64,000 nt of DNA, from the NCBI RefSeq assembly GCF_011758655.1, contig NZ_JAAMPA010000001.1:3224001-3288000 (forward strand), read 5' to 3'. Position 1 is the stretch's first letter, and each line of letters begins with the position of its first letter. This stretch comes from Modestobacter marinus. GTDB taxonomy: Bacteria; Actinomycetota; Actinomycetes; Mycobacteriales; Geodermatophilaceae. The translations under genes were made by a program, and so were the position numbers. Below the pieces are notes generated by a model. It saw only the letters and a program-made list of their open reading frames with translations, had not been told where the DNA came from and did not search any database. Shown here piece after piece: positions 10,598-24,632 of the stretch.

Positions 10598-11278
10598 TCA
10601 CCGCGTGGTGAGGTGGGCGACGACCAGGTCACACAGCAGCTCCCGTTGGTGGGCGCGGGTCGCCGGGTCGAGCATGTCCCGGTCGAAGATGGCCCGGAAG
10701 GTGTGCCGGTTGGCGGTCCGGAAGACGCAGAACGCGCTGATCACCTGGTGCACGTCGAGCGCGTCGACGTCGTCGCGGAACAGCCCGTCGTCCCGGCCGC
10801 GCTGCAGGATGGCGCCCAGCACGTCGACGGCCGGGGCGGCCAGCCCGGCCAGGGCCGGTGAGCCGGCCAGGTGCTCGGCCCGGTGGATGTTCTCGATGCT
10901 CACCAGCCGGATGAACTCCGGGTGCGCCTCGTGGTGGTCGAAGGTGAGCCCGGCGAGCTCGCGGAGCGCGGCCACCGGCTCGAGGTGCTCGACGTCCACC
11001 TGCTGTTCCAGGGCGCGGATCCGGCCGTAGGCCTGCTCCAGCACAGCCACGTAGAGCTGCTCCTTGCCGCCGAAGTAGTAGTAGATCATCCGCTTGGTCG
11101 TGCTCAGCTTGTCGGCGATCTCGTTGACCCGGGCCCCGGCGTACCCGCGGTCGGCGAACTCCGCGGTGGCCACGGCCAGGATCTCCGCGCGGGTCCGGTC
11201 GGCGTCCCGGGTGCGCTCCACCGGGCGCACCGGGGGCTCCTCGGTGCCGGGCTCGCTGTCCGGGCGGCGCGCGGTCAC
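10598..11278 (-). CDS. TetR-family regulator, divergent from qsuB
   Basis: A 226-residue repressor. After a charged 27-residue lead, the HTH runs about 28-75 (AEILAVATAEFADRGY, then TTKRMIYYYFGGKEQLY). The C-terminal ligand domain is the TetR type common near aromatic-acid genes. It starts 164 bp from the oppositely oriented qsuB gene. An ACCATTTGGT palindrome lies in that gap, so it probably represses qsuB and perhaps itself; an aromatic or hydroaromatic acid would be the effector. The SDR gene downstream on the same strand could also belong to its transcript. Effector and target are inferred from position. Confidence 0.88.
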   Translation of the reverse strand: MTARRPDSEPGTEEPPVRPVERTRDADRTRAEILAVATAEFADRGYAGARVNEIADKLSTTKRMIYYYFGGKEQLYVAVLEQAYGRIRALEQQVDVEHLEPVAALRELAGLTFDHHEAHPEFIRLVSIENIHRAEHLAGSPALAGLAAPAVDVLGAILQRGRDDGLFRDDVDALDVHQVISAFCVFRTANRHTFRAIFDRDMLDPATRAHQRELLCDLVVAHLTTR

Positions 11279-11413
11279 GGTCTCCTCCTGCGTGGACGGA
11301 CGGTCCGGCGGAGCCTATGCACACCGCGGCCCGCGCGGGCCCCGGGACCGGGACGGGGCTCCGGCGGGGGGACTGGCGCGCCGTCGTCCGATGTGGTCGG
11401 CTGTCGGTAACTC

Positions 11414-11423
11414 ACCATTTGGT
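11414..11423 (+). promoter_or_regulatory. Short palindrome upstream of qsuB, probable TetR site
   Basis: ACCA-TT-TGGT is an interrupted palindrome 20 bp before the qsuB start and inside the TetR/qsuB divergent gap. A TACATA element at 11423-11428 follows and could be a -10 box, so a bound repressor would cover it. Confidence 0.4.
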
Positions 11424-11442
11424 ACATACGAGAGCAGGGTCC

Positions 11443-13341
11443 ATGCCGCCAGCCCGCCGACCGCAGCCGACGGACGGCGCCGTGCCCGCCGCGCGGCCTC
11501 GCCGGGGGATCGCCACGGTGTGCCTGTCCGGGACGCTGGAGGACAAGCTCACCGCCGCGGCGGCCGCGGGCTTCGACGGCATCGAGGTGTTCGAGCCGGA
11601 CCTGATCGCCTCCCCGTGGTCGCCGGCCGAGCTGGCGGTGCGCTGTGCCGACCTCGGCCTGTCGATCGACCTCTACCAGCCCTTCCGCGACCTGGACTCG
11701 ACCGACCCCGTGCGCTTCGCCGCCAACCTGCGCCGCGCCGAACGGAAGTTCGACGTGATGGGCGCGCTCGGCGTCGACACCGTGCTGGTCTGCTCCTCCG
11801 TCGCCCCGGACGCGGTGGCCGACGTCGACCAGCTCGCCGAGCAGCTGTCGACCGCCGCGGCGCGGGCCGAGCTGCGCGGACTGCGGATCGCCTACGAGGC
11901 GCTCGCCTGGGGCCGGCACGTCTCGACCTGGGACGTCTCCTGGGACGCCGTCCGCCGGGCCGACTCGGCCGCGCTGGGGCTGTGCCTGGACAGCTTCCAC
12001 GTCCTCTCCCGCGGCGGTGACCCGGCCGGCTTCGCCGCGGTGCCGGGGGAGAAGCTGTTCTTCCTCCAGCTGGCCGACGCCCCGCAGCTGACCATGGACG
12101 TGCTGCAGTGGAGCCGGCACCACCGGCTCTTCCCCGGGCAGGGCGCCTTCGACCTGCCCGGCTTCCTCGGCGCCGTGCTCACGGCCGGGTACCGCGGGCC
12201 GTTGTCGCTGGAGGTGTTCAACGACGTGTACCGCCAGTCCGACCCGGCGCGCACCGCCGTGGACGCCATGCGCTCGCTGCAGTGGCTCGAGGAGGCGCTC
12301 GCCCTGGCCGACCCCGCCGCCGGGCTCCACCGGCCGCCGGCCGCACCGCAGCTGTCCGGGTGGTCGTTCACCGAGCTGGCCGTCGACGGCGTCTCCGGCC
12401 CGCAGGTCGGGGAGGCGCTCGCGGCCCTGGGGTTCACCCACACCGGCCAGCACCGCTCCAAGCCGGTGCAGCTGTGGGAGCAGGAGGCGGCGCGGGTGCT
12501 GCTCAACGCCTCCGTCGTCCGGGCCGGCGCGCCGGGGGAGGCCGCGGTCTCCGCGCTGGGGCTGGAGAGCAGCGACCCGCAGCGCTCGGCCGTCCGTGCC
12601 GAGGCGATGAGCGCACCGGTGCTCCCGCGGACCCGCGGGGCGACCGAGGCCGAGCTGTCCGCGGTCGCGGCCCCCGACGGCACGGAGGTGTTCTTCACCC
12701 GCACCGGGCCCGACGGCTGGCCGGCCGACTTCCTGCCCACCGGCGCCCCACCCGCGGCGGGTGCCGGGCTCACCGGCATCGACCACGTCGCTCTCGCGCA
12801 GCCCTTCGACGCCTTCGACGAGGCCGGGCTGTTCTACCGCGCGGTGCTCGGCCTGGAGCCGCAGCAGGTCACCGAGCTGGCCGCACCCTTCGGTCTGGTG
12901 CGCACCCGGGCGGTGACCGGCCCCGACCGCGCGGTGCGGCTGACCCTCTCCGCCTCCTCCCTGCGCCGCGGCGGCTGGGCTCCCCGGGTCCCCGAACCGC
13001 AGTACCTCGCCTTCGCCACCGACGACGTCGTGGCGACGGCGGAGCGGCTGCGGGCCGCCGGCGCCCCGCTGCTGCGGCTGCCGGAGAACTACGCCGACGA
13101 CCTCGAGGCCCGGTTCGACCTCCCCGCCGACCTGCTGGCCGCCATCCGCGAGCACGGGCTGATGTACGAGGAGGACGTGCACGGCGCCTGCCTGCAGCTG
13201 GCGACCGAGGTCCTCGGTGACCGGTTCTTCGTCGTGGTCGTGCAGCGGCTGGGGGGCTACGACGGGTACGGCAATGCCGATGCGCCGGTCCGGATGGCCG
13301 CCCACCGCCGTCAGCGGCGCGCCGCGGCGGTGTCCCGGTGA
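11443..13341 (+). CDS. qsuB: QsuB-type fusion: 3-dehydroshikimate dehydratase plus HPPD-like VOC domain
   Basis: A 632-residue two-part enzyme. Residues 22-290 form a xylose-isomerase-like TIM barrel whose metal ligands are visible in AYEAL (Glu), LCLDSFH (Asp/His), FLQLADA (Gln) and SLEVFND (Glu). This domain converts 3-dehydroshikimate to protocatechuate. Residues 345-620 resemble 4-hydroxyphenylpyruvate dioxygenase. IDHVAL supplies His448, but the second iron-ligand position reads PQYLAF with Tyr521, so classical HPPD activity is doubtful. The layout matches Corynebacterium QsuB. ATG 11443 is chosen because the barrel starts soon after. A TIM-barrel gene follows 40 bp on, and the TetR gene is divergent. 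Confidence 0.92.
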   Translation: MPPARRPQPTDGAVPAARPRRGIATVCLSGTLEDKLTAAAAAGFDGIEVFEPDLIASPWSPAELAVRCADLGLSIDLYQPFRDLDSTDPVRFAANLRRAERKFDVMGALGVDTVLVCSSVAPDAVADVDQLAEQLSTAAARAELRGLRIAYEALAWGRHVSTWDVSWDAVRRADSAALGLCLDSFHVLSRGGDPAGFAAVPGEKLFFLQLADAPQLTMDVLQWSRHHRLFPGQGAFDLPGFLGAVLTAGYRGPLSLEVFNDVYRQSDPARTAVDAMRSLQWLEEALALADPAAGLHRPPAAPQLSGWSFTELAVDGVSGPQVGEALAALGFTHTGQHRSKPVQLWEQEAARVLLNASVVRAGAPGEAAVSALGLESSDPQRSAVRAEAMSAPVLPRTRGATEAELSAVAAPDGTEVFFTRTGPDGWPADFLPTGAPPAAGAGLTGIDHVALAQPFDAFDEAGLFYRAVLGLEPQQVTELAAPFGLVRTRAVTGPDRAVRLTLSASSLRRGGWAPRVPEPQYLAFATDDVVATAERLRAAGAPLLRLPENYADDLEARFDLPADLLAAIREHGLMYEEDVHGACLQLATEVLGDRFFVVVVQRLGGYDGYGNADAPVRMAAHRRQRRAAAVSR

Positions 13342-13381
13342 CACCGGCCGGCTCTGCCGACATCGAGAGGACGGACGTGTC

Positions 13382-14176
13382 GTGAACCGGTTGGCCGTAC
13401 ACCAGTCGGTGGTGCACCCGCGCAGCCCCGTCGAGCTCACCGAGCTGCTGGCCGGCACCGGCTGGGACTCGATCGGCCTGCACGTCGGAGCCGTGGCCGA
13501 GGTCGAGCCGTGGTGGTCCGGTGGCGCGGGGGAGCGCAACCTGCAGCGGCTCGTCGACGAGCTCCTCGAGACGCGGGTGACGGTGCTGGACGTCGGCCGG
13601 GTGCAGCTCGGCGGCACCCTGCCCGACGACCACGTGCACGCCGCCCACGGGCGGGTGCTGGACCTGGGCGCCCGGTTCGGTGCCCGCCACGTCACGGCGC
13701 GCTTCGATCCGGCGACCGCGGCCGGACAGGAGCTGGCCGAGCAGGTCGACGTCTTCGGCCGGCTGGTCGAGCAGGCCCGCCCCTACCGGCTGCTGCCGCT
13801 GCTCGCGCCGCTGCCGGTCGACCGCCCGGACCTGCTCGCCGGCGCGGCGGCCGTCGTGCGTCCCAGCGGGGGCGGCGTCGTCCTGGACGTGCCGGTCGGC
13901 AGCTGCACGCCGGCCGGGGTCGAGGCGGCCGTCGACGTGCTCGGCGAGTCCCTCGGCTACGTCCGGCTCAGCGCGCGGCAGGTCGAACGGGCCGGTGAGG
14001 TCACCGCCGGCCTGCTCGCCACCTTCCCGCCGCACGTCCCGGTCGCGCTCGGCGGCGACGACTCCGTCGGCGTGCTCACCGACGACCCCACCGCCCGGCT
14101 GGACCGGCTGCACGGCCTGGTCGACCAGATGCTCGAACACCCCCGGGCGCGCGCCCGCCGGCTGGCCGCCGGCTGA
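13382..14176 (+). CDS. Sugar-phosphate-isomerase-like TIM barrel lacking metal ligands
   Basis: A 264-residue protein with the pattern of the xylose isomerase-like TIM-barrel superfamily: about eight beta/alpha units and a start resembling the SVVHPRSPVELTELL opening. The usual Glu, Asp/His, His and Glu metal ligands are not found where expected: the strands read LLPLLAPL, VLDVPVG, YVRLSARQ and VALGGDD. It is therefore probably not a metal-dependent isomerase. GTG 13382 is preceded by GAGAGGAC. It follows qsuB by 40 bp, likely in one transcript, so a role in hydroaromatic catabolism or in binding a pathway intermediate is inferred only from position. Confidence 0.65.
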   Translation: MNRLAVHQSVVHPRSPVELTELLAGTGWDSIGLHVGAVAEVEPWWSGGAGERNLQRLVDELLETRVTVLDVGRVQLGGTLPDDHVHAAHGRVLDLGARFGARHVTARFDPATAAGQELAEQVDVFGRLVEQARPYRLLPLLAPLPVDRPDLLAGAAAVVRPSGGGVVLDVPVGSCTPAGVEAAVDVLGESLGYVRLSARQVERAGEVTAGLLATFPPHVPVALGGDDSVGVLTDDPTARLDRLHGLVDQMLEHPRARARRLAAG

Positions 14177-14246
14177 CCCGGGGCCGCGACCGGCGCGGCG
14201 GCCGGCCCGGCCGGGCGAGGCCGGTCACGCCCAGGGGTGCTCGGGC

Positions 14247-15278
14247 TCACGAGGTCAGATGCGGGGTGAGCAGTCGGGCCGGGTTGACCACCGTCATCTG
14301 GTGGACGTCGTCCTCGGTGGCCCCGCCGGCGAGCAGCAGGGGGACCACCCGCGTCGGGATGTTCTCGAAGCGCCAGTGCGGTGCGTGGCGGGCCCGCCAC
14401 GACGGTGGCGTGACGCGGCTGAAGCAGGCCGCGTCGTGGGAGAGCACCATCCGGTCGGCGTACCCCAGCCGCAGCAGCGCCAGCACGGTGGCGACGCGGC
14501 GGTCGTCGGGAAGGACGTGCTCCATGCCGAACCGGTCCATGCCGATGGTCGACCCGGCGTCCATCAGCACCCGCAGGTACGTGAGGTCCTCGGTGTCCCC
14601 GGAGTGGCCGATGACCACCCGGTCCAGTGGCACGCCCTGCTTCCGCAGGAACGCCTGCTGGTCCAGCCCGTTGCGCAGGGCCGGCCGGCTGTGCGTGGTG
14701 ATCGGGACGCCGGTCTGCTGGGCGGCCACCGCGGCGGCGGTCATCACCCGGGCGACGTCCTCGGTGATGCCCGCCTCGTCGGTGACGACCTTGAGCATCC
14801 CGGCCCGGACGCCGGTGCCGGCGATGCCCTCCTCGATGTCGGCGAGGAAGAACTCGATCAGCGGGTCGGGGCCGCCGACCAGCAGCCCCGGCCCGTGGGT
14901 GCCGAAGTAGGGCGGCAGCACGTCGGCGGTGTAGTAGCCGGTCGAGGCGATCAGGTGCACCGGCACCCGCTCGGCCACGGGCACCAGGCGGGCGACGTCC
15001 CGGCCGAGGCCCAGCACGGTCAGGTCGACCACCGTGCGGACGCCGAGGTCGCGCAACCGGGTCAGCGCGGTGACGGCCCGGTCGACGGCGGTGGCCGGCT
15101 CCCACTCCGGGTGCGGGTGGTTGAGGTCGAGCTCCGGGCTGCTGACGAAGACGTGCTCGTGGACCAGCGTCGTCCCGAGCTGCTCGGGGTGCACCGGGCC
15201 GCGGAAGGTCTGCACCACCGCCCCGGGGCGCTCCTGTGCGGAGTCGCCCCGGGGCTGGGTGCGGAGGGCGTCGGTCAC
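14247..15278 (-). CDS. Phosphotriesterase-like metal hydrolase / lactonase
   Basis: A 343-residue amidohydrolase-fold enzyme of the phosphotriesterase family. Two metal ions are expected, with ligands seen as HEHVF (His pair), MLKVVTDE (carboxylated Lys), THSR (His), IGHSGD (His) and LSHDAAC (Asp). Natural substrates of the group are mostly lactones. The start overlaps the end of dctP by 4 bp, making it the last gene of the dctQM-qsuD-dctP operon. A role in opening a lactone or ester of a hydroaromatic acid taken up by the TRAP system is inferred. The first 20 residues are unconserved, so a later start is possible. Confidence 0.88.
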   Translation of the reverse strand: MTDALRTQPRGDSAQERPGAVVQTFRGPVHPEQLGTTLVHEHVFVSSPELDLNHPHPEWEPATAVDRAVTALTRLRDLGVRTVVDLTVLGLGRDVARLVPVAERVPVHLIASTGYYTADVLPPYFGTHGPGLLVGGPDPLIEFFLADIEEGIAGTGVRAGMLKVVTDEAGITEDVARVMTAAAVAAQQTGVPITTHSRPALRNGLDQQAFLRKQGVPLDRVVIGHSGDTEDLTYLRVLMDAGSTIGMDRFGMEHVLPDDRRVATVLALLRLGYADRMVLSHDAACFSRVTPPSWRARHAPHWRFENIPTRVVPLLLAGGATEDDVHQMTVVNPARLLTPHLTS

Positions 15279-16306
15279 TCGGCCGAGTCGCGGATGGCCT
15301 CGTAGACGCTGAGCTGCTCCTCGCTCAGGTTGGCCCGCAGGTACTCCTCGGCCTGGGTGCGGAAGGCGTCGACGTCCACGTCCTCCACGACCTCGAACTC
15401 ACCGCCCGAGGTCCACTCGTCGAGGACCTGCTGCTCGTCCTCCGCGACGCACTCGGGCACCTGCTCGACGGCTGCCGCGACCGCGGCGTCGAGGGCCTCG
15501 CGCTGCTCGTCGGACAGCTCCTCGACGCCCGGGCCGGCGATCACCAGGTTGGAGTTCTCCTGGTGGGCGGACAGGCTGAGGAAGTCCTGCACCTCGCCGA
15601 GGTTCTGGGCGTCGATGTTGACGATCGGGTTCTCCTGGCCGTCGACGATGCCCTGCTGGAGAGCCAGGTACAGCTCCTCGTAGGCCACCTCGGTCGGCTC
15701 CGCGCCCAGGGCGCGGGCGTTCATCAGGTACTGCGGCGAGTTGGGGAACCGCATCCGCAGGCCCTCCAGGTCGCCGGGCTCCCGGATCGGCTGGCCGGCG
15801 GTGAAGTGCCGGGCGCCGGCGGACCAGGCACCGAGCACGCTGGCGCCGGTGGCGTCGGCGAAGCCCTGGGTCAGCTCGTCGGAGGCGTCGCTGCCGAAGA
15901 AGGTGGCCAGGTGCTCCCCGTCGTCGAAGGCGTACGCCGCGTCGACGACGCTCATCGGCTCGTACACCGCCCCGAGCGCCGAGGCGCCCTGGATGTCCAG
16001 GTCGACGTCGCCGGAGATGACCGACTGGATGCGGTCGGCGTCGCCGCCGAGCTGGCTGCTCGGGAAGATCTCCACGGTCACGCCGACGTCGGCGGCCTCG
16101 AGCTCGTCGGCGATGACCTGCGCACCGCACCGGTGCTGCGGCTGCTGCTCGGTGTAGCTGTGCGCGAGGGTCAGCTCCACCTCGCCGCCGCCGCCACCGG
16201 CCTCTCCGCCGCCGGCGTCGTCGCCGCCACAGGCGGTGGCGAGCAGGAGCGGGAGGAGGGCGGAGGCCGCGAGGAGCGGGCGGGTGGGGAGGGGACGGTG
16301 GGTCAT
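15275..16306 (-). CDS. dctP: TRAP transporter substrate-binding lipoprotein DctP
   Basis: A 343-residue extracytoplasmic solute receptor. Residues 1-26 are a lipoprotein signal ending in LLATAC, with the lipid-modified Cys at about 26, then a Gly/Glu-rich linker. The DctP fold follows, including SGDVDLDIQGASALG, PGDLEGLRMRFPNSP and the conserved arginine (LRMRFP) that binds a substrate carboxylate. A C-terminal helical tail completes it. ATG 16306 has a GAAGGGAAAG ribosome site. It lies fourth in an operon, after the two permeases and the dehydrogenase, and overlaps the hydrolase. The dehydrogenase suggests the ligand is shikimate, quinate or a derivative. Confidence 0.92.
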   Translation of the reverse strand: MTHRPLPTRPLLAASALLPLLLATACGGDDAGGGEAGGGGGEVELTLAHSYTEQQPQHRCGAQVIADELEAADVGVTVEIFPSSQLGGDADRIQSVISGDVDLDIQGASALGAVYEPMSVVDAAYAFDDGEHLATFFGSDASDELTQGFADATGASVLGAWSAGARHFTAGQPIREPGDLEGLRMRFPNSPQYLMNARALGAEPTEVAYEELYLALQQGIVDGQENPIVNIDAQNLGEVQDFLSLSAHQENSNLVIAGPGVEELSDEQREALDAAVAAAVEQVPECVAEDEQQVLDEWTSGGEFEVVEDVDVDAFRTQAEEYLRANLSEEQLSVYEAIRDSAE

Positions 16307-16329
16307 GGTCTTTCCCTTCGTCGGGATTC

Positions 16330-17286
16330 TCAGTGCTCGGTCGGTCGGGCGGTCGGGCGGTGTGCGGGTCGGGTGCCGGACGGCAGCCCGTCGCCGTCGA
16401 TCTCGGCGGCGACGAGCTCGTCGAAGTCGGCGAACATGGCCGGCCGGGCCGCCGCACGGCCGAGGAAGAGCTCGAAGGAGTCCGCGGCCTGGTTCACGGC
16501 CATCCCGGCGCCGGTCATCACCCGGCACCCCAGGGCGGTCGCCTCCTTCACCAGCTCGGTCAGCAGCGGCCGGTAGACGATGTCGGCGACCCAGAGGTCC
16601 TCGCGCAGCAGGCCGGCGGGCACCGGGCTGCCGGGGTGGGCCGCCATCCCCATCGGGGTGGCGTTCACCAGGCCGGACGCCTCGGCGAGCAGGTCGGGCA
16701 GTTCCTCCGGCGCGCAGACCGTCGTCGACACCTGGTTGCCGGCTGCCGCGAGCGCGTCGATCAGCTGCTGGGCGCGGACCGCGTCGCGGTCGACCACCGA
16801 CAGGTGCGCCACGCCCTGGCCGGCGAGGGCGTGCGCGACGGCGCCCCCCGCGCCGCCGGCGCCGATCAGGACGACCCGCTCGAGCGGGACCCCCGGCAGC
16901 CCGGCCCGCAGGGCGGCGGCGAAGCCGGTCACGTCGGTGTTGTGACCCCGGGTGCGACCGTCCTCGACCACGATCGTGTTGATCGCGCCGATGGCGGCGG
17001 CCTCCGGAGCCAGCTCGTCGACGAGTGGCGCCATCACCTGCTTGACCGGGTGGGTGACGTTGAGGCCGTCGAAGCCGAGCTCGACCGCGGCGCGCAGCAG
17101 GCCCCGCAGGTGGTCCGGCCGCAGGGCGTCGTCCGGCAGCTCGACGGTCTTGTAGGTGTAGCGCAGGCCCTGCCGTGCGCCCTCCCGTTCGTGCAGCTCG
17201 GGGGAGAGCGACGGCCCGATGCCCTGGCCGAGGAGCCCGGCGAGGAAGGACCGGCGGGCAGCCGGCGGCGGTGCGGAGGCGGTCAC
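16330..17286 (-). CDS. Quinate/shikimate dehydrogenase, probably NAD-dependent and catabolic
   Basis: A 318-residue AroE-fold enzyme that oxidises shikimate (or quinate) to its 3-dehydro form. The catalytic lysine lies in GLNVTHPVKQ and its partner Asp in HNTDVTGF. The cofactor loop is GAGGAGGAVA. The next strand ends LSVVDRD, with Asp where NADP-specific AroE enzymes carry NRT. This suggests NAD, as in Corynebacterium QsuD. The GTG start at 17286 overlaps the dctM stop by 3 bp and dctP follows after 23 bp, so it sits inside a TRAP operon rather than with biosynthetic aro genes. A catabolic role feeding QsuB is strongly suggested. Confidence 0.9.
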   Translation of the reverse strand: MTASAPPPAARRSFLAGLLGQGIGPSLSPELHEREGARQGLRYTYKTVELPDDALRPDHLRGLLRAAVELGFDGLNVTHPVKQVMAPLVDELAPEAAAIGAINTIVVEDGRTRGHNTDVTGFAAALRAGLPGVPLERVVLIGAGGAGGAVAHALAGQGVAHLSVVDRDAVRAQQLIDALAAAGNQVSTTVCAPEELPDLLAEASGLVNATPMGMAAHPGSPVPAGLLREDLWVADIVYRPLLTELVKEATALGCRVMTGAGMAVNQAADSFELFLGRAAARPAMFADFDELVAAEIDGDGLPSGTRPAHRPTARPTEH

Positions 17287-18557
17287 AGGCCCAGCACCTC
17301 CGGCAGCCAGAGGACGGCGTCGGGGAAGGCGATGATCAGGCCGAGGATGACGATCAGCGGGACGATGAACGGCAGGCACCCGCGGAAGACCTCGCTGACC
17401 TTGGTCTCGGCCACCGAGCTGAGCACGTACAGCACGGTGCCCACCGGCGGGGTGAGCAGCCCGATCATCAGCGCGACGATCATGAGGACGCCGAGCACGA
17501 TCGGGTCGACGCCGAAGCTCGCGCTGATCGGCAGCAGGATGGGCACCACCAGCACCAGGACGGCGGTGGGGTCGACCACCGTGCCCAGGACCAGCATCAG
17601 CACCGCGGTCATCAGCAGGAACACCGTGGCGTTCTCGGTGAACCCGAAGACGTTCTCGGCCAGCAGCTGGGGGACCCGCTCGCGGGCCAGGATGTAGCCC
17701 AACAGCGACGCCGAGGAGACGATCAGCATGATCGCCCCGGTCGTCGTCACCGTCTCGGTGAGCACCTTGGGCAGCTCCCGGACGGACAGACTCCGGTAGG
17801 CGAGGCAGAGCACCAGCATGTAGGCGACGCCGACGGCGGCGGCCTCGGTGGGCGTGAAGAAGCCGCCCAGGATGCCGCCCAGGATGATCACCGGGGCGAG
17901 GATGGGGCCGATGACCCGTCGTCCGGTGACCACCAGCCGGCGCATCGAGAAGTCGGTGCGGACGATGTCGGGCTGCTTCCGCACCAGGAAGAAGACGACG
18001 ACGCACAGGCCGAAGGCCATCAGCAGGGCCGGCACGACGGAGGCGGCGAAGAGTCCGCCGGTCGAGACTGCGGCCAGCCCGGCGAAGATCACCGCCGGGA
18101 TGCTCGGCGGCATCACCGGGGCGATCAGCGAGGCGGCGCCGGTGACGCCGAGCCCGAAGCGGAGCGGGTAGCCGTTGCGCACCATGGCCGGGATCTGGAT
18201 CTTGCCCAGGGCGGCGGCGTCGGCCACCGCGGAGCCGCTCATCCAGGAGAAGCCGAGGCTCACGCCCACGCTCACGTAGCCGAGGCCGCCGCGCACCCGG
18301 CCGAGCAGTGCCAGGGCGAAGTCGAAGAGCCGGTCGGCGATGCCGCCGCGGTTCGCGATGACGCCGAGCAGGATGAACAGGGGCACGGCCAGCAGCGGGA
18401 AGCTCGCGGTCGCGTTGACGATCAGCCGGAGGCTCAGGCCCAGGGACTGCCCGGTGAGCAGCATGTAGGCCAGCGAGGGGCCCAGGAAGGCGAAGGCCAC
18501 CGGGACCCGGACGAAGAGCAGGGCGACGATCGCGATGGTGAGGAGCAGCAGGCTCAT
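17283..18557 (-). CDS. dctM: TRAP transporter large permease DctM
   Basis: A 424-residue integral membrane protein with about 12 hydrophobic helices. The family signature region FPLLAVPLFILLGVIANRGG is near the N-terminus. Later blocks GSAVADAAALGKIQIPAM, TPTEAAAVGVAY and LTPPVGTVLYV are all typical of DctM. It forms the sodium-driven translocation channel with DctQ. ATG 18557 overlaps the dctQ stop by 4 bp (ATGA), and its own stop overlaps the dehydrogenase start. Ligand choice is set by DctP further down the operon. Confidence 0.95.
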   Translation of the reverse strand: MSLLLLTIAIVALLFVRVPVAFAFLGPSLAYMLLTGQSLGLSLRLIVNATASFPLLAVPLFILLGVIANRGGIADRLFDFALALLGRVRGGLGYVSVGVSLGFSWMSGSAVADAAALGKIQIPAMVRNGYPLRFGLGVTGAASLIAPVMPPSIPAVIFAGLAAVSTGGLFAASVVPALLMAFGLCVVVFFLVRKQPDIVRTDFSMRRLVVTGRRVIGPILAPVIILGGILGGFFTPTEAAAVGVAYMLVLCLAYRSLSVRELPKVLTETVTTTGAIMLIVSSASLLGYILARERVPQLLAENVFGFTENATVFLLMTAVLMLVLGTVVDPTAVLVLVVPILLPISASFGVDPIVLGVLMIVALMIGLLTPPVGTVLYVLSSVAETKVSEVFRGCLPFIVPLIVILGLIIAFPDAVLWLPEVLGL

Positions 18558-19093
18558 GCCGGCCGCACCTCCGTCGTCCCGACCGGAGCCGGCACCCCGC
18601 GGACGGCGAAGAGCACGGCGGCGACGGCGCCACGGATGGCGGTGCTGAGGAAACCGAGGAAGGGGAAGAGGTACAGGAAGGTCAGCGGCATGCGCAGGGA
18701 CGGCGACCTGAGCTGTCCCTGGGAGGACATCAGCTCCCACGCCTCGGCCGCGAAACCGGCGCCGATCACGGCGACGATCGCGCTGGCCAGGACCCGCACG
18801 AACCGGACGACCTTCGGGTTCTTCACGTTGTCGACCAGCTGCAGCGCGATGTGGGAGTCGGTGGTGACGAGCACGCCGGCCACCGTGAACGTGACCCAGA
18901 CCAGGCAGAACCGCGCCAGCTCACCGGTCCACGACCAGCCGGCGACCGGCAGGTAGCGCTGCGCCGCCTGGACGAGCACCAGCAGGAAGAGCACCGCCAG
19001 CGCCGTCGCGGCGAGCCCGAGCTCGACCTTCGTGATCACCGAGATCCACCTGGGTCTGCGCCGTGCGGTGGTCGCCTCGTGGGCTCCGGTCAT
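18554..19093 (-). CDS. dctQ: TRAP transporter small permease DctQ
   Basis: A 179-residue membrane protein with four predicted helices (about 20-42, 58-80, 98-118, 140-165). The DctQ block around WTGELARFCLVWVTFTVAG is clear. It pairs with DctM to form the membrane part of the TRAP importer. ATG 19093 is preceded by AGAGAGGAC. It is the first gene of the five-gene operon running to 14247. The operon's promoter region, 19094-19217, is shared with the divergent LacI gene and holds a LacI-type operator. Confidence 0.92.
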   Translation of the reverse strand: MTGAHEATTARRRPRWISVITKVELGLAATALAVLFLLVLVQAAQRYLPVAGWSWTGELARFCLVWVTFTVAGVLVTTDSHIALQLVDNVKNPKVVRFVRVLASAIVAVIGAGFAAEAWELMSSQGQLRSPSLRMPLTFLYLFPFLGFLSTAIRGAVAAVLFAVRGVPAPVGTTEVRPA

Positions 19094-19163
19094 CGCCGTC
19101 CTCTCTCCGCCTCTGTGCTGCCGGTCACAGCACGGGGGACGGTACGAAGGTCGGAGGTCGGGC

Positions 19164-19177
19164 GGCAAACGGTTGCC
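19164..19177. promoter_or_regulatory. LacI-type operator in the TRAP/lacI divergent gap
   Basis: GGCAAACGGTTGCC is a near-perfect palindrome with the central CG typical of LacI/GalR-family operators. It overlaps the likely -35 of the lacI-type gene and lies close to a TGCCGC/TACCGT promoter candidate for dctQ on the other strand, so one repressor could control both. A further TTGCC copy follows at 19183-19187. Confidence 0.65.
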
Positions 19178-19202
19178 ATGTGTTGCCAAACCCTCGTAAC
19201 CT
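19173..19202 (+). promoter_or_regulatory. Promoter of the LacI-family gene
   Basis: TTGCCA (19173-19178) and TAACCT (19197-19202) are separated by 18 bp. Transcription would begin at about 19208-19212, right at the first start codons (GTG 19212, ATG 19218), so the mRNA is probably leaderless. The -35 lies inside the LacI operator, which implies autoregulation. Confidence 0.55.
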
Positions 19203-19217
19203 GACCGTGATGTGCAG

Positions 19218-20216
19218 ATGACGAGCTCGACGATCTACGACGTCGCCAAGGCCGCCGGCGTCGCGACCTCGACGGTGTCGCGGGCCTTCAGCAACCCCGA
19301 CCGGGTGGGGGCGGTGACCCGGGAGCACGTCCTGGAGGTCGCCCGCCGGCTCGGCTACCAGCCCAACCCGCACGCGCGGGCGCTGGTGTCCCGCCGCACC
19401 CGGACGGTCGCGATGGTGGTCTCCGACATCACGAACCCGCACTTCTTCGAGCTCATCCGGGGCGCGGAGATGCGGGCGAAGGCCTCCGGCTACACCCTCG
19501 TCCTGGTCAACGCGGAGGAGTCACCGCGGATCGAGCTCGAGCAGGTCCACCGGCTGACCCGGTCGGTCGACGGCTTCCTGCTGGCCGCGAGTCGCCAGCC
19601 CGCCGACGATCTCCTGCAGCTGGCGGCCAACCACCGGGTGGTCGTGGTCAACCGCCGGGTGCCCGGCCTGGCCAGCGTGGTGCTCGAGCACGCCGAGGGG
19701 TGCCGGCAGATGGTCGCCCACCTGGCGTCCCTCGGGCACGAGTCGGTCGTCTACCTCGCCGGCCCGCGCAGCTCCTGGATGGCGGCGAGCCGCTGGGCGG
19801 CCATCCGCGGAGCCGCGGCGGAGCTGGGTCTGCGCGCACAGCGGATGGGGCCGTTCGCGCCCACCGTGGCGAGCGGGGGCGCGGCCGCCGATGCGGCGCT
19901 GACCACCGGCGCGACCGCGGCCATCGCGCACAACGACCTGCTGGCCATCGGGGTCATGCGGCGCCTGGCCGACCGCGGCGTCCAGGTGCCGGCGGACGTG
20001 AGCGTGGTCGGGTTCGACGACATCTTCGCCGCCGACCTGTGCACCCCGACCCTGACCACGCTCGGCGGTGCGCACGCCGACGTCGGGCGGGCGGCGGTGG
20101 AGATCCTGCTGAACTCGATGGAGCAGCCGCGGGATCTGGCCCCGGAGCTGGTCGTGCCCTCGGAGCTCATCCTGCGCCGGTCGACCGGCGTCCCCGGTCG
20201 TCCTGCGGGCCGGTGA
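19218..20216 (+). CDS. LacI-family transcriptional regulator of the TRAP/shikimate operon
   Basis: A 332-residue repressor. The HTH at 3-25 reads TIYDVAKAAGVATSTVSRAF, followed by the hinge helix region (NPHARALVSRR). A periplasmic-binding-protein-like sensor domain (about 60-330) contains VGFDDIFAADLCTPTLTT. ATG 19218 is preferred; a GTG at 19212 would add two residues. No Shine-Dalgarno exists, in keeping with a leaderless transcript. It faces the dctQ-dctM-dehydrogenase-dctP-hydrolase operon and its likely operator lies between them. The inducer is probably the imported acid or its oxidation product. Confidence 0.92.
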   Translation: MTSSTIYDVAKAAGVATSTVSRAFSNPDRVGAVTREHVLEVARRLGYQPNPHARALVSRRTRTVAMVVSDITNPHFFELIRGAEMRAKASGYTLVLVNAEESPRIELEQVHRLTRSVDGFLLAASRQPADDLLQLAANHRVVVVNRRVPGLASVVLEHAEGCRQMVAHLASLGHESVVYLAGPRSSWMAASRWAAIRGAAAELGLRAQRMGPFAPTVASGGAAADAALTTGATAAIAHNDLLAIGVMRRLADRGVQVPADVSVVGFDDIFAADLCTPTLTTLGGAHADVGRAAVEILLNSMEQPRDLAPELVVPSELILRRSTGVPGRPAGR

Positions 20217-20491
20217 TCGGTCGGTCATCGGCCTGACCGGCGACCGGGTCCCGGCCAGGACGCCGGGTCCCCTGGGTCGACGGGGCCTTGCGGGCGAGCA
20301 CCCGCGTCCGTGAGCCGACCTGGCAGTGTGAGGGCGTCGTGGGCCCCTGGGGGCCGGCGCGCCGCGATCGAGCAGGCGGGTCGCGGCGCCGGCGTCGCAC
20401 GACCGGTGCTGCGGCTGTCGGCGCGGAGGGGGGGTCGGGCAGACGCCCCCGGGCCCGGTGGTGTGGGTGCCGGGCCGGATCGGGAGGGCAG

Positions 20492-21319
20492 ATGACAGAC
20501 CAGGCAACCGAGCTGCGCTTCAAGCCGCAGGAACTCCTGCTGGCGCTGGGCGGCGCGCTCATCCTCGACACGTACGAGGACCCCCTGCCCACCCGGGTGT
20601 TCCTCGACGTGCTCGGTTCCGTGGGCGTCAGTGCTGACGCCACCAGGTCGGTGCTGACCCGGCTCACCGAGCGCGGCCTGCTGACCCGGCACCAGGACGG
20701 GAGAGTGGCCAGCTACGGGCTGACCGAGACCTCGCGGAGGGTCCTGCGGGAGGGGCGGCGGCGGGTGCGGACGCCCGACCCGTTCCACCAGGCGAGCAGT
20801 GACTGGACGCTGTTGAGCTTCTCCTTGCCGGAGTCGCAGCGGGACGTCCGGAGTCGGCTGCGGTCCCGGTTGACCTGGGCCGGCTTCGGCTGCCTGCGCG
20901 ACGGGCTGTGGATCGCGCCGGGCCGCGTCGACCTCGACTCGATCATCGCCGTGGGTGCCGACGTGGGGGGCTTGTCGATCGACGGGTTCGTCGCCGCTCC
21001 GGCCGCCGGCACGGACGTCGCCCGGTTCGTCCGGCGGGCCTGGGACCTCGATGCCCTGCGCTGGGAGCACGAGGAGTTCCTCCGCAGGTGGGACCGGCCC
21101 CTCCCTCGGGGCGAGGACCCGCTGGCCCTCTTCACCCTCCTCGGCGCCCACTGGATCCGACTGCTCCGCAGCGACCCGGTGCTGCCCGAGCGCCACCTGG
21201 GCGAGGACTGGCCCGGGCGCCGGTCGGCGGCCGTGTACGGCACCGTCGTGACGGCTCTGGAGGCGCGGGCGCAGGCGGCCTTCGCCGACCTGGTGAGAGA
21301 CGCACGCGCCAGACGGTGA
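20492..21319 (+). CDS. PaaX-family transcriptional regulator
   Basis: A 275-residue protein with the PaaX layout. An N-terminal winged helix (about 10-85) includes RVFLDVLGSVGVSADATRSVLTRL-type segments and GRVASYGLTE. A central domain contains FSLPESQRDVRSRLR and GFGCLRDGLWIAP, and a C-terminal PaaX domain includes LFTLLGAHWIRLLRSDP. In enteric bacteria PaaX responds to phenylacetyl-CoA. Here no paa gene is close: the LacI gene is upstream and a secreted hydrolase 104 bp downstream. Target and ligand are therefore open. ATG 20492 has GGGAGGGCAG upstream. The 275-bp gap before it holds nothing I can name. Confidence 0.88.
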   Translation: MTDQATELRFKPQELLLALGGALILDTYEDPLPTRVFLDVLGSVGVSADATRSVLTRLTERGLLTRHQDGRVASYGLTETSRRVLREGRRRVRTPDPFHQASSDWTLLSFSLPESQRDVRSRLRSRLTWAGFGCLRDGLWIAPGRVDLDSIIAVGADVGGLSIDGFVAAPAAGTDVARFVRRAWDLDALRWEHEEFLRRWDRPLPRGEDPLALFTLLGAHWIRLLRSDPVLPERHLGEDWPGRRSAAVYGTVVTALEARAQAAFADLVRDARARR

Positions 21320-21362
21320 GCTGGATGCCGTGGCGCAGCTCACAGAAAAGGTCGGCAACTCG

Positions 21363-21391
21363 TTGACGCCCGTTCGGTCCGGGCCTAGCGT
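21363..21391 (+). promoter_or_regulatory. Sigma-70-like promoter of the secreted hydrolase gene
   Basis: TTGACG (21363-21368) and TAGCGT (21386-21391) are spaced by exactly 17 bp. The hydrolase start is 32 bp further on, with a GTGAGG ribosome site between. Confidence 0.6.
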
Positions 21392-21422
21392 CACCGGCAC
21401 CCGAGCCCCTGTGAGGATGCTG

Positions 21423-22820
21423 ATGTCCCCCCGATCCCTCGTCCCCGGCCTGGCCTGCGCGCTGGCCGTCTCGCTCGCCGCCGCCTCACCCGCCGCAGCC
21501 GGGGAGCCCTCGGGCCCGCGGCACGTCGAGGGGACGGTCGACGACGGGGCCACCGCCTGGGTCGCCGACGTGCCGGCCGACTGGAACGGCACCGTGCTCC
21601 TGTACAGCCACGGCTACCGGCCCAGCTTCTTCCCCATCCCGCACACCGCGGAGAACGCGCCGGACGACGTGACCCGGCAGGCCCTGCTGGACCGGGGGTA
21701 CGCCCTCGTCGGCTCCTCCTACGAGCGCAGCGGATGGACGCTGGACACCGCTGCGGAGGACCAGCTGCAGACCCTCGAGGCGTTCTCCGTCGCCGTCGGC
21801 GAGCCGTCGCGGGTGCTCGCCGTCGGGACCTCCATGGGGGGCCTGGTGACCGGTCAGCTGGCCGAGCTCCCGGGCACCCCGGTCGACGGTGCCCTGCCGA
21901 CCTGCGGGCTCGTGCACGGCGGGGTGGACCTGCTCAACTACCAGCTCGACGGTGCCCATGCGATCGCCCAGCTGCTCGTCCCAGCGGGCACCGAGGTGCG
22001 GCTGGCCGACTACGAGGGCGACCTCGCCGCCGTCAACGCGGCCGCGAGCACCCTCACCGACGCCGTGGTGGCCGCGCAGGACGACCCCGAGGGCAGGGCG
22101 CGGATCGCGCTCGCCGCCGCGCTCTACCACCTGCCGCGCTGGGCCCCGGGTGAGGCCGAGCCCGGTCCGCGGGACCACGAGGCGCAGGTCGACGCGCAGG
22201 TCGCCCAGTTCACGTCCGCACTGGGCTTCACCTACCCGGCGCGGGTCGACATCGAGAACACGGTGGGGGGGAACCCCTCCTGGAACGCAGGCGTCGACTA
22301 CCGCACGTTGCTGCAGCACGCGGACGAGCGGGGGCAGGTGGAGGCCCTGTACCGGGCGGCCGGCCTGGATCTCGACGCCGACCTCGACCGGCTGACCGCG
22401 ACGGCGTCGGTGACGCCTGACGAGCAGGCGCTGCAGACCGCCCGCGCCACCTCCGAGCTCACCGGGGAGCTGCAGGTCCCGGTGCTCAGCCTGCACACCA
22501 CGCACGACGTCCTGGCCCCGGTGCAGGTCGAGGAGGAGTACGCGGAGACGGTGCGCCAGGCCGGTGCGAACAGGCTGCTGCGCCAGGCCTTCGTGCACCG
22601 GCTGAGCCACTGCCAGTTCACCCCGGCCGAGCTGGTCGCCTCCGTCGAGGCCCTCGACGAGCGGGTCGCCACCGGGCGCTGGGGCTCTGCGGCCCATCCC
22701 CGCACCCTCGATGCAGCGGCTGAGGAGCTCGGCCTCGGTCCGTCGGAGATCCTCTGCGACTACCGGCCGGCCGAGTGGCTGGGCGACCGCGGTGGCGCGT
22801 TCGGCCCACCGCGCTACTGA
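21423..22820 (+). CDS. Secreted alpha/beta hydrolase
   Basis: A 465-residue exported hydrolase. Residues 1-25 form a Sec signal (LVPGLACALAVSLAAASPAAAG). The mature fold has the oxyanion region LLYSHGY, nucleophile elbow GTSMGG (Ser at about 138), likely acid in HTTHDVLAP and His in RLSHCQF. Two cysteines, in PTCGLVHGG and LSHCQF, could pair outside the cell. ATG 21423 is used because GTGAGG at 21411-21416 sits 6 bases upstream; an ATG at 21417 touches that site. It is followed by another secreted hydrolase (frameshifted), so the pair may act together on an extracellular ester or peptide. Substrate is unknown. Confidence 0.85.
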   Translation: MSPRSLVPGLACALAVSLAAASPAAAGEPSGPRHVEGTVDDGATAWVADVPADWNGTVLLYSHGYRPSFFPIPHTAENAPDDVTRQALLDRGYALVGSSYERSGWTLDTAAEDQLQTLEAFSVAVGEPSRVLAVGTSMGGLVTGQLAELPGTPVDGALPTCGLVHGGVDLLNYQLDGAHAIAQLLVPAGTEVRLADYEGDLAAVNAAASTLTDAVVAAQDDPEGRARIALAAALYHLPRWAPGEAEPGPRDHEAQVDAQVAQFTSALGFTYPARVDIENTVGGNPSWNAGVDYRTLLQHADERGQVEALYRAAGLDLDADLDRLTATASVTPDEQALQTARATSELTGELQVPVLSLHTTHDVLAPVQVEEEYAETVRQAGANRLLRQAFVHRLSHCQFTPAELVASVEALDERVATGRWGSAAHPRTLDAAAEELGLGPSEILCDYRPAEWLGDRGGAFGPPRY

Positions 22821-22947
22821 CCGCGACCGCAGTCCGGCACGGGCGCCGGGCACCCCGCGTGCCCGGCCCCGTGCCGACACTCCCGGCGTCCCTGGGCGCC
22901 GTGCCGTTCTCCATCCCGTTCGCCGTCCAGTTCCCCGTGGAGGAAGC

Positions 22948-24632
22948 GTGCTCAGCAGACAGCGCCGTCGTCTCGGCGTGATCGGCACCATCACCGGCGC
23001 GGTCGTGGCGGGGGTGCTGGCACCACCGGCCGCCGCACACCCCGGCCGCCCCGCCGACGCCACCAACGCCGTCCAGCCGGACTGGTTCGACTACGACCGG
23101 CCGGCCGCCTACGACACCGTCGTGGAGCGGCTGCAGGTGCCGATGCGGGACGGCTTCGAGCTCGGGTGCACCATCGCCCGGCCCGCGGTCGGCGGTGAGC
23201 CGGCGGCCGGGAGTTCCCCGGGATCCTCCGCAGCTACACGCCGTACGGCAGGGCCGTGGCGGAGGCCGAGGGCGCGTTCGCCACCTTCTTCAGCCAACGT
23301 GGCTACAACGTGATGTCCTGCGACATCCGCGGCACCGGGATCTCCCCGGCGCCGGGCTTCGAGGCCCGCTGGCCGATCCAGGGCAGGGACGGCCACGATG
23401 CGGTGGAGTGGCTGGCCGACCAGTCGTACTCCACGGGCAAGGTCGGCGCGTCCGGGACGAGTTACGGCGGGCAGACGACCCTGGAGATCGCGGCACAGCA
23501 ACCGCCGCACCTCGCGGCGATCGCCCCCAACGTCTCGCCGATGGAGAACTACGCCGAGATCTTCTACCCGGGCGGCGCGCCGGCGGCAGCGGACTGGCTC
23601 TGGGTCGGCAGCCCCGACGTGGCGGACCCCACCTTCGAGCAGCGGCAGCTCGAGGCGTTCCGGGCACACCCCACCTACGACGAGTACTGGGACGTCCAGA
23701 ACGTGGCGAACGTGCACGAGGACATCGAGGTGCCGGTCCTGCTCACCGGCGGGTGGTTCGACGTCTTCCGGGCCGGTGCCATCGGCAACTACCAGGGCCT
23801 GCGGGACGCCGGCAACGACGACGTCCGCTTGGTCATGGGGCCCTGGACCCATGCGGACACCTGGGAGCAGGAGGCCGAGCCCCTGCCGATCGGCGCGACC
23901 CTCGCCTGGTTCGACCACTGGCTGGGCGAGGACCCCGACGCACCCCTGCCGGCGGCGCCGGTGACCAGCTACGAGGTCGAGGGCACCACCGGGGGGCGCT
24001 GGGTCGAGCTGGCCGACTGGCCGGCAGACGGGGAGGGCACGGAACTCGCCCTCGGCACCGACCGTGAGCTGGACCGGCGGCCCGGCAAGCCGGGCACCCT
24101 CGATCTCGCGATCGACCCGGACGACGGTCCGGCCACCACCTGCCTGGTCGGCTGCCCGCGGCCGACGGACCCGGCGGCGGACAACGCCGCGGCGGACGAG
24201 GGGCGGCTGACGTTCACGTCCGGCCCGCTGGTCCACGACGCCGTGCTGGCCGGGCAGGCCGAGGTCACGCTGGAGGCGACCCTGCCCAACAGCGACGGCA
24301 ACCTCGTGGCCAAGGTGATGGACGTCGCCCCCGACGGTCGCGTCACCGAGGTCGCCGCCGGCTGGCTCCGGGCCAGCCACCGCTTCGGGCACGAGCAGAG
24401 CGTCCCCGTCACCCCCGGTGAGGAGGCCACCTTCGTCATCGATACCCAGCCGGCGCACTGGCGCTTCGCGGAGGGCCACCGGGTGCGGATCAGCCTCATG
24501 ACCGGCGACGTCCCGCGGCTGGCACCGGATGGCTCGACCGGGGTCATCGGCGTCGCCACCGGCGCCCGTGGCTCCGTGGCGGAGATCGAGTTCACCCACC
24601 GGGTCCGCTTCGCGAGGACTCCCAGGGCGTAG
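22948..24632 (+). pseudogene. CocE/NonD-type secreted hydrolase (X-Pro dipeptidyl-peptidase fold), split by a -1 frameshift
   Basis: The gene starts at GTG 22948 after GGAGGAAG, with a signal peptide ending PPAAAHP. The frame runs through PDWFDYDRPAAYDT and PMRDGFELGCTIARPAVGGEP, then goes out of register at GGG 23209-23211. The sequence continues in the -1 frame from GAG 23211 (EFPGILRSYTPYG) to a TAG at 24632. The second part holds the nucleophile GASGTSYGG, acid GGWFDVF, His GPWTHAD and the C-terminal jelly-roll domain of CocE hydrolases. One extra G in the GGG run would restore the whole 561-residue protein. It may be a pseudogene, a sequencing slip or a programmed shift. Confidence 0.88.

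What the first reader, a model, noticed from the sequence alone, without database searches (positions are those of the whole stretch)
10598..20216. Hydroaromatic acid catabolic region joining TRAP uptake, NAD-type shikimate dehydrogenase, QsuB and a phosphotriesterase-like hydrolase
Two facing transcription units, one under a TetR and one under a LacI regulator, combine import, oxidation and ring aromatisation to protocatechuate. No 3-dehydroquinate dehydratase is present, so shikimate, not quinate, is the simplest substrate. The phosphotriesterase-like enzyme, coupled to dctP, adds a step not known in Corynebacterium qsu genes: perhaps hydrolysis of a lactone or ester such as a quinide- or shikimate-type lactone. 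This is my best candidate for a new pathway here.
Basis: partly seen in the sequence, partly recalled or inferred. Interest (0 to 1): 0.72.

Follow-up and report, generated by a model that had tools for sequence, protein, structure and literature searches.

The report
Plant-acid uptake cluster with extra hydrolase
A soil actinobacterium carries a conserved gene cluster that most likely imports shikimate- or quinate-type plant acids and turns them into protocatechuate, with an extra hydrolase of unknown substrate that, in the genomes sampled, goes with one type of importer and may trim the imported compound first.

Summary
The genes are as described, in a Modestobacter-like genome. One gene was missed (13383-14176). 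The cluster recurs in Pseudonocardia, Nocardioides, Mumia, Jiangella, Cellulomonas and, in part, Blastococcus. Of 394 class genomes, nine carry this PTE subfamily and the same nine carry this DctP clade. Eight have a related TRAP-QuiC-SDH operon without PTE (LacI seen in seven), so the hydrolase is an add-on to one importer version, not needed for aromatisation. The PTE is PLL-type but has its own polar loop (TPPSWR, 31 of 31 rows, 0 of 22 others). Its DctP lost two bulky aromatics near the ligand arginine. I favour hydrolysis of a bulkier hydroaromatic ester or lactone; no substrate is shown. Two MAG loci pair DctP-PTE with an alcohol dehydrogenase instead of SDH/QuiC, which weakens a strictly hydroaromatic role. 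New variant of a known kind.

The parts
10598..11278 (-). TetR regulator (TetR_N + TetR_C_29); homologues at 60-67% identity lie beside SDH and mostly QuiC in TRAP-less clusters of other actinobacteria
11443..13341 (+). QuiC/QsuB two-domain 3-dehydroshikimate dehydratase; E/D/Q/E ligand positions of the dehydratase domain conserved; HPPD-like domain has lost two of three iron-ligand positions (H-Y-V instead of H-H-E)
13383..14176 (+).
14190..14237 (-). Remnant (~48 bp, ends approximate) of the 3' end of a deleted aroQ (type II 3-dehydroquinate dehydratase); intact in L001-L005
   Evidence: a global alignment did not place it, the local ones do
14247..15278 (-). PTE-family hydrolase (PF02126), PLL-like, no signal peptide apparent (inference), metal ligands kept, own loop [FY]S[RHQ][VMI]TPPSWR
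15275..16306 (-). DctP solute-binding protein (probable lipoprotein, inference) of the clade that goes with this PTE
16330..17286 (-). Shikimate/quinate dehydrogenase, NAD-type by its beta-2 Asp; catalytic Lys and Asp and the Asn conserved
17283..18557 (-). DctM large TRAP permease
18554..19093 (-). DctQ small TRAP permease
19163..19178 (.). Putative LacI operator, consensus TGGCAANCGNTTGCCA, only match with <=2 mismatches in the 64-kb window
19212..20216 (+). LacI-family regulator, diverging from the TRAP-SDH-PTE operon

Best explanation
A hydroaromatic acid catabolic cluster of the quinate/shikimate (qsu/qui) kind. LacI controls dctQ-dctM-SDH-dctP-PTE; TetR controls QuiC-TIMx. DctP captures a hydroaromatic carboxylic acid that still carries an extra group, DctQM imports it, and the cytoplasmic PTE-family metal hydrolase removes that group (ester or lactone cleavage). 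SDH oxidises the freed quinate or shikimate at C3 with NAD+; AroQ (here only the copy elsewhere in the genome, in relatives also one in the operon) turns 3-dehydroquinate into 3-dehydroshikimate; QuiC aromatises it to protocatechuate, which enters the pca genes found elsewhere in the genome. Shown here (sequence level): the gene set, its conservation, the aroQ loss, the operator motif, the co-occurrence of this PTE clade with this DctP clade, the PTE and DctP signatures. Inferred: all reactions, ligands and regulation, above all the PTE step.
For: Gene families and catalytic residues of SDH and QuiC. Order conserved in 25 of 28 PTE-led loci; QuiC in 22 of 28 fetched stretches, in 12 of them directly after PTE on the same strand. 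aroQ in the cluster in 5/5 other Modestobacter loci, 2/2 Jiangella, G166, G299, G362. The 14 other DctP matches (<=54%) show no PTE within 1.5 kb, nor in the wider stretches read for 12 of them; 8 are TRAP-QuiC-SDH operons without PTE, LacI seen in 7. PTE: H254, D258, S287, T290, S293, W294, R295, R310 in 31 of 31 cluster rows; of 22 other PLL rows one has S287, one S293, one R295 and none the other five; TPPSWR 31 of 31 against 0 of 22. DctP 162/163 are S or N and A, T or V in 33 of 33 PTE-linked rows, Y and F in 8 of 8 type B rows, just before R166, which aligns with a SiaP arginine. Operator at <=2 mismatches in 29 of 34 LacI-dctQ gaps; 0.0005 expected per 200 random bases. pca genes in the genome.
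Against: Two MAG loci (L019 Acidimicrobiia, L020 Chloroflexi) have PTE-ADH-DctP-DctQ-DctM with a zinc alcohol dehydrogenase and no SDH beside them; their genomes have no QuiC match. G022 (Blastococcus tunisiensis) and G709 (identical DctP, probably the same species) keep SDH-DctP-PTE but have no QuiC match. So PTE is not bound to aromatisation. The co-evolution signal between PTE and DctP is not specific: with SDH (and LacI) as controls the partial correlation falls to 0.40 (0.22), and to 0.07 without three discordant genomes. The nearest solved DctP relatives are named C4-dicarboxylate or sialic-acid binders, at 21-30% identity in the fold list. In Vibrio natriegens a TRAP transporter beside a 3-dehydroshikimate dehydratase is discussed as a protocatechuate importer (PMC13253662, passages), so the TRAP here could carry an aromatic acid. 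No substrate was tested.
Confidence: 0.55

Rival explanations
1. The cluster is hydroaromatic, but DctP-PTE handles a different acid (a sugar acid, aldonolactone or other hydroxy-acid lactone) and is only co-located; LacI marks a second pathway that shares the SDH.
For: L019/L020 keep DctP-PTE with an alcohol dehydrogenase and without SDH/QuiC. LacI regulators mostly sense sugars (recalled). Nearest DctP in the PDB by sequence is 4pc9/4pcd, recalled to bind hexonates.
Against: SDH lies inside the LacI operon, between dctM and dctP, in the 25 conserved loci, and QuiC follows PTE directly in 12 (Nocardioides, Jiangella, Cellulomonas and others). PTE-less versions of the LacI-TRAP operon also carry QuiC-SDH.
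Confidence: 0.22
2. Simple importer of shikimate, quinate or an aromatic acid; the PTE is a side activity, for instance cleaning up lactones or esters formed from the substrate or its products, without being on the main path.
For: Type B operons, presumably for the same acids, have no PTE. A TRAP next to a 3-dehydroshikimate dehydratase in Vibrio natriegens is discussed as a protocatechuate importer (PMC13253662, passages).
Against: PTE is kept in each of the 9 sampled genomes with this DctP clade and has a private, conserved loop.
Confidence: 0.15
3. PTE is a quorum-quenching or detoxifying PLL (acyl-homoserine lactonase / organophosphate hydrolase) that hitch-hikes.
For: Best solved relative is 4if2; PLL Tyr97 and Arg223 equivalents are present.
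Against: Loop 8 differs in kind from the other PLLs compared; curated models for OPH, PRK09875 and phospho-furanose lactonase are not reached (157/500, 124/486, 61/630 bits).
Confidence: 0.05
4. PTE replaces the 3-dehydroquinate dehydratase (a dehydrating amidohydrolase).
For: In the window PTE is present and operon aroQ is not.
Against: Relatives carry both side by side, and the window's absence is a deletion.
Confidence: 0.03

Closest known systems
qsu genes of Corynebacterium glutamicum (QsuB dehydratase, QsuD quinate/shikimate dehydrogenase)
   Same: QsuB-type two-domain dehydratase and QsuD-type dehydrogenase; product protocatechuate (PMC9324987, PMC12241104, PMC5948850: passages seen)
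   Different: TRAP importer instead of an MFS one, LacI/TetR instead of LysR control (both recalled for C. glutamicum); PTE hydrolase and TIMx added; operon aroQ lost in this strain
QuiC1 of Pseudomonas putida (PDB 5hmq)
   Same: Near full-length match of P0002, dehydratase ligand positions identical
   Different: HPPD-like domain of the Modestobacter protein lacks two iron-ligand positions
TRAP genes beside a 3-dehydroshikimate dehydratase in Vibrio natriegens (PMC13253662, passages)
   Same: A TRAP transporter co-located with a 3-dehydroshikimate dehydratase
   Different: Sits in a protocatechuate 4,5-cleavage region and is discussed as protocatechuate uptake; the paper's main text has 0 occurrences of quinate and phosphotriesterase
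Phosphotriesterase-like lactonases (M. tuberculosis PPH 4if2, SsoPox)
   Same: Family, metal ligands, Tyr97 and Arg223 equivalents
   Different: Own clade (SH-aLRT 99) with its own loop 8; operon context with TRAP and SDH
SiaP-type and other TRAP solute-binding proteins (2cex, 4pcd)
   Same: Fold; aligned Arg, Arg and Asn
   Different: 24-30% identity; two bulky residues near the first Arg replaced by small ones

Membership tests
Phosphotriesterase-like lactonase (PLL) | PF02126 family and binuclear metal ligands (HxH, Lys, His, His, Asp; recalled) | tested here: met
   255.5 bits against cut-off 22.4; residues visible in the alignment with 4if2
Phosphotriesterase-like lactonase (PLL) | PLL active-site Tyr97 and Arg223 (numbers recalled for SsoPox) | tested here: met
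   Y116 and R249 of P0004, in 31 of 31 cluster and 22 of 22 other rows
Phosphotriesterase-like lactonase (PLL) | Hydrophobic loop 8 that holds the acyl tail of AHLs (recalled) | tested here: not met
   [FY]S[RHQ][VMI]TPPSWR in 31 of 31 rows
Phosphotriesterase-like lactonase (PLL) | Lactonase activity | not testable with these tools
   needs enzyme assay
OPH / PRK09875 / phospho-furanose lactonase (NCBIfam equivalogs) | Curated score cut-off | tested here: not met
   156.9/500, 123.8/486, 61.4/630 bits
QuiC/QsuB two-domain 3-dehydroshikimate dehydratase | N-terminal TIM barrel with E/D/Q/E ligand positions plus HPPD-like domain | tested here: met
QuiC/QsuB two-domain 3-dehydroshikimate dehydratase | NCBIfam NF042435 equivalog cut-off | tested here: not met
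   568 of 1200 bits, residues 20-629
NAD-type quinate/shikimate dehydrogenase (QsuD) | Catalytic Lys and Asp, Asn, and Asp after beta-2 | tested here: met
NAD-type quinate/shikimate dehydrogenase (QsuD) | PRK14027 equivalog cut-off | tested here: not met
   255.5 of 515 bits; PRK12549 shikimate dehydrogenase subfamily is met, 367.2 against 235
TRAP transporter | DctP, DctQ and DctM over a curated cut-off | tested here: met
   Pfam for all three, TIGR00787 and TIGR00786
Complete qsu-type quinate pathway | 3-dehydroquinate dehydratase in the cluster | tested here: not met
   deleted in the window; present in 5/5 other Modestobacter loci with this PTE

The most novel reading that the evidence does not exclude
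A new enzyme activity within the PTE family: a hydroaromatic-conjugate hydrolase (O-acyl-quinate/shikimate esterase or carboxylated lactone hydrolase), defined by the [FY]S-x-x-TPPSWR loop and paired with a wide-pocket DctP clade, forming an actinobacterial route that imports intact plant conjugates by TRAP and cleaves them inside the cell before oxidation.
Probability: 0.4. Interest if true: 0.65.

Novelty: new variant of a known kind. Interest (0 to 1): 0.5.

Why it matters
Quinate, shikimate and their esters are abundant in plant litter (recalled), and a gene set joining TRAP, SDH, 3-dehydroshikimate dehydratase and a phosphotriesterase-family hydrolase did not show in the listings of my searches of an open-licence library. 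If right, the cluster gives a defined, testable enzyme-transporter pair in many soil actinobacteria, a natural comparison set (operons with and without PTE), and a residue signature that could assign a physiological substrate to one branch of a family known mostly for promiscuous organophosphate and quorum-signal hydrolysis (recalled).

Tried and rejected
PTE as stand-in for pcaD (enol-lactone hydrolase): rejected, a pcaD match over cut-off sits in the genome near PF00775- and Lyase_1-family genes. PTE as stand-in for aroQ: rejected. DctP-PTE 'co-evolution': a partial Mantel with DctM alone looked strong (r 0.78, 29 loci), but with SDH and LacI as controls most of it went, so I do not claim specific co-evolution. 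Tree tests: PTE-linked DctPs (A plus L019/L020) form one branch (SH-aLRT 99); joining L019/L020 to the PTE-less type B is rejected for DctP (AU p 7.8e-6), and for DctM, A plus L019/L020 as one branch is marginally rejected (p 0.036). Further tests: DctM, A plus L019/L020 without L155-L157, p 1.2e-10; DctP, L156/L157 with Jiangella, p 0.037; PTE cluster rows without L019/L020 as a clade, not rejected, p 0.083. The groups were set by gene content before the trees, but the tests were chosen after seeing them, and the trees are quick ones with long branches. Neighbouring hydrolases (21330-24632): close matches only in L004 among the loci then held, so not part of the system. Chloroflexota survey: 2 of 251 genomes matched, one of them G020 itself, the other at 47%. 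hhalign of TIMx against the QuiC barrel was weak; the link came from the fold search and from a homologue fused to QuiC in Jiangella. A TetR operator was looked for in nine loci and the window; no shared palindrome was found. Plasmid search for PTE: 17 records, all <60% identity, not followed.

Rows dropped before counts: L009 (broken frames) from the trees and the operator count; PTE rows with internal stops or under 300 aligned residues from the PTE alignment; loci without LacI or DctQ from the operator count. Of the 57 SDH matches, 30 were fetched as loci; wider stretches were read for some of these and for other genomes (20 regions, 14); the remaining SDH matches were not looked at. 'No TRAP' and 'no PTE' mean no tblastn match to the window's own proteins in the stretch read.
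Full report
Where it is. The window lies in a Modestobacter-like genome (G000, 5.1 Mb, 12 contigs): the five nearest loci, L001-L005, are Modestobacter records with PTE at 93-94% identity.

What is there. Two units face each other. Left, + strand: QuiC/QsuB (11443-13341) and an unlisted gene (13383-14176), with TetR diverging at 10598-11278. Right, - strand: DctQ, DctM, SDH, DctP, PTE, overlapping by 4 bases at three of four junctions, and LacI diverging at 19212. QuiC matches 5hmq over residues 18-629 of 632 with the four dehydratase ligand positions kept. SDH matches QsuD (3jyo) with catalytic Lys and Asp and the Asn kept and Asp at the end of beta-2, hence NAD. DctP is a TRAP binding protein by sequence and by AlphaFold model (mean pLDDT 86; first fold matches SiaP 2cex and 4pcd).

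The missing dehydratase. The genome has no type I 3-dehydroquinate dehydratase match and one type II match about 4 kb from its second SDH-family gene. Type II matches were found in 27 of 29 genomes searched, and each of G001-G005 (the Modestobacter loci) has two; the second sits directly after PTE, at L001:11035-11490 and the same place in L002-L005. Aligned locally to these, the window lacks about 426 bases of L001 and keeps about 48 bases of the aroQ 3' end at 14190-14237; the remnant is short, and a single global alignment did not place it, so its ends are approximate. A cluster with aroQ also occurs in both Jiangella loci and in G166, G299 and G362.

Distribution. A PTE-led scan of genome contigs gave 28 loci: 25 have LacI, DctQ, DctM, SDH, DctP and PTE, 22 have QuiC and 7 AroQ within the fetched stretch. 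This set is chosen by PTE, so I repeated it from other genes over 394 genomes of the class (each genome's best 5 first-look candidates were scored; some genomes are the same as in the first set). SDH (E <= 1e-30) is in 53 genomes, 57 matches; of 30 loci fetched, the window's own among them, 7 show TRAP plus PTE within 1.5 kb and 23 show neither. Of these 23, 19 were read more widely: 4 have a TRAP operon without PTE (G278, G319, G251, G374) and 15 have no TRAP match, 13 of them with TetR and 13 with QuiC. DctP (E <= 1e-45) is in 21 genomes, 23 matches: the 9 at >= 63% identity all have PTE beside them; the 14 at <= 54% have none within 1.5 kb, nor in wider stretches read for 12 of them, and 8 of these are DctM-DctP-QuiC-SDH operons, LacI and DctQ seen in 7 (L150 is cut by the contig end). 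PTE (E <= 1e-40) is in 70 genomes; the 9 matches at >= 58% are in exactly the same 9 genomes, and 21 further loci read (<= 52%) have none of these neighbours within 1.5 kb. Within Geodermatophilaceae this PTE (E <= 1e-90) is in 8 of 112 genomes, 6 of them of the window's genus. So PTE looks like an add-on to one importer version and not a requirement of the aromatising pathway.

What the hydrolase is. It is PLL-like: best solved relative 4if2, metal ligands, Tyr97 and Arg223 equivalents (SsoPox numbers recalled). But the cluster proteins, L019 and L020 included, form their own clade (SH-aLRT 99) with a loop 8 of the form [FY]S[RHQ][VMI]TPPSWR. H254, D258, S287, T290, S293, W294, R295 and R310 are in 31 of 31 rows; among 22 other PLL rows one has S287, one S293, one R295, and none has any of the other five. 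A polar, arginine-bearing loop suits an acidic, hydroxylated substrate rather than an acyl-homoserine lactone (inference). Its partner DctP has Ser/Asn and Ala/Thr/Val where type B DctPs have Tyr and Phe, three to four residues before R166. R166 aligns with the arginine that I recall as a ligand contact in SiaP; that suggests a roomier pocket (inference, no coordinates examined). Together: a bulkier hydroaromatic acid comes in and PTE removes the extra group.

What speaks against it. L019 and L020 (MAGs) pair DctP-PTE with a zinc alcohol dehydrogenase and no SDH beside it, and their genomes have no QuiC match; G022 and G709 have SDH-DctP-PTE and no QuiC match. The PTE-DctP correlation is not specific once SDH and LacI are controls. 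TRAP relatives in the fold list lie far off (21-30% identity in the 50 shown). No substrate has been tested.

Regulation. The LacI-dctQ gap holds TGGCAANCGNTTGCCA within 2 mismatches in 29 of 34 loci, in operons with and without PTE; the consensus came from the same loci, so the count leans towards it, but chance is about 0.0005 per 200 random bases and the window has a single site, 19163-19178.

The unlisted gene. P0003 is found in 21 of 112 Geodermatophilaceae genomes; in 19 of 20 loci read it lies within 1.5 kb of QuiC, in the other beside AroQ. In 231 class genomes only two others matched, weakly. Its model (mean pLDDT 74) is a TIM barrel; the first of many similar fold matches is 5hmq, QuiC1 itself (E 4e-7). 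In Jiangella a homologue is fused in frame behind a QuiC (profile match 33 bits). The glutamate that this homologue has on the middle strand is not kept in P0003 while the following aspartate is; beyond that the alignment is uncertain. I would guess that it is not an ordinary metal enzyme of that family (inference).

Literature. Searches for dehydroshikimate dehydratase with TRAP transporter (1 paper, the Vibrio one), phosphotriesterase with quinate (3), phosphotriesterase with shikimate dehydrogenase and TRAP (0), quinate, shikimate, TRAP and solute-binding protein (0), and TRAP transporter with solute binding, lactone and phosphotriesterase (0) returned nothing that by listing describes this cluster. 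Passages of PMC13253662 and PMC5082522 were read; the other two of the three were seen as listings only. The library holds open-licence papers only. I also read passages of PMC9324987, PMC12241104 and PMC5948850.

Verdict. A real, conserved hydroaromatic cluster with an interesting extra hydrolase; a new variant of a known kind.

Noticed in passing
13383-14176: Unannotated TIM-barrel protein kept beside QuiC in Geodermatophilaceae; a homologue is fused to QuiC in Jiangella (L189:82-2316).
   Followed up: partly
11443-13341 (C-terminal half): HPPD-like domain of QuiC has Tyr and Val/Met at two of the three iron-ligand positions in the window, L001 and L005; L026 has Tyr/Gln; most other rows keep H-H-E.
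   Followed up: partly
   Followed up: no
L019, L020: PTE next to a zinc alcohol dehydrogenase and a TRAP operon in Acidimicrobiia and Chloroflexi MAGs: maybe the same module on a different substrate.
   Followed up: partly
L151, L152: A further TRAP-SDH cluster type (DctP 43-44% by tblastn) with IclR regulators and, in L151, aroQ between dctP and dctM.
   Followed up: no
20486-24632: PaaX-like regulator and two alpha/beta-hydrolase-type enzymes (one only by a sub-threshold match) next to the cluster; shared only with L004 among the loci then held.
   Followed up: partly
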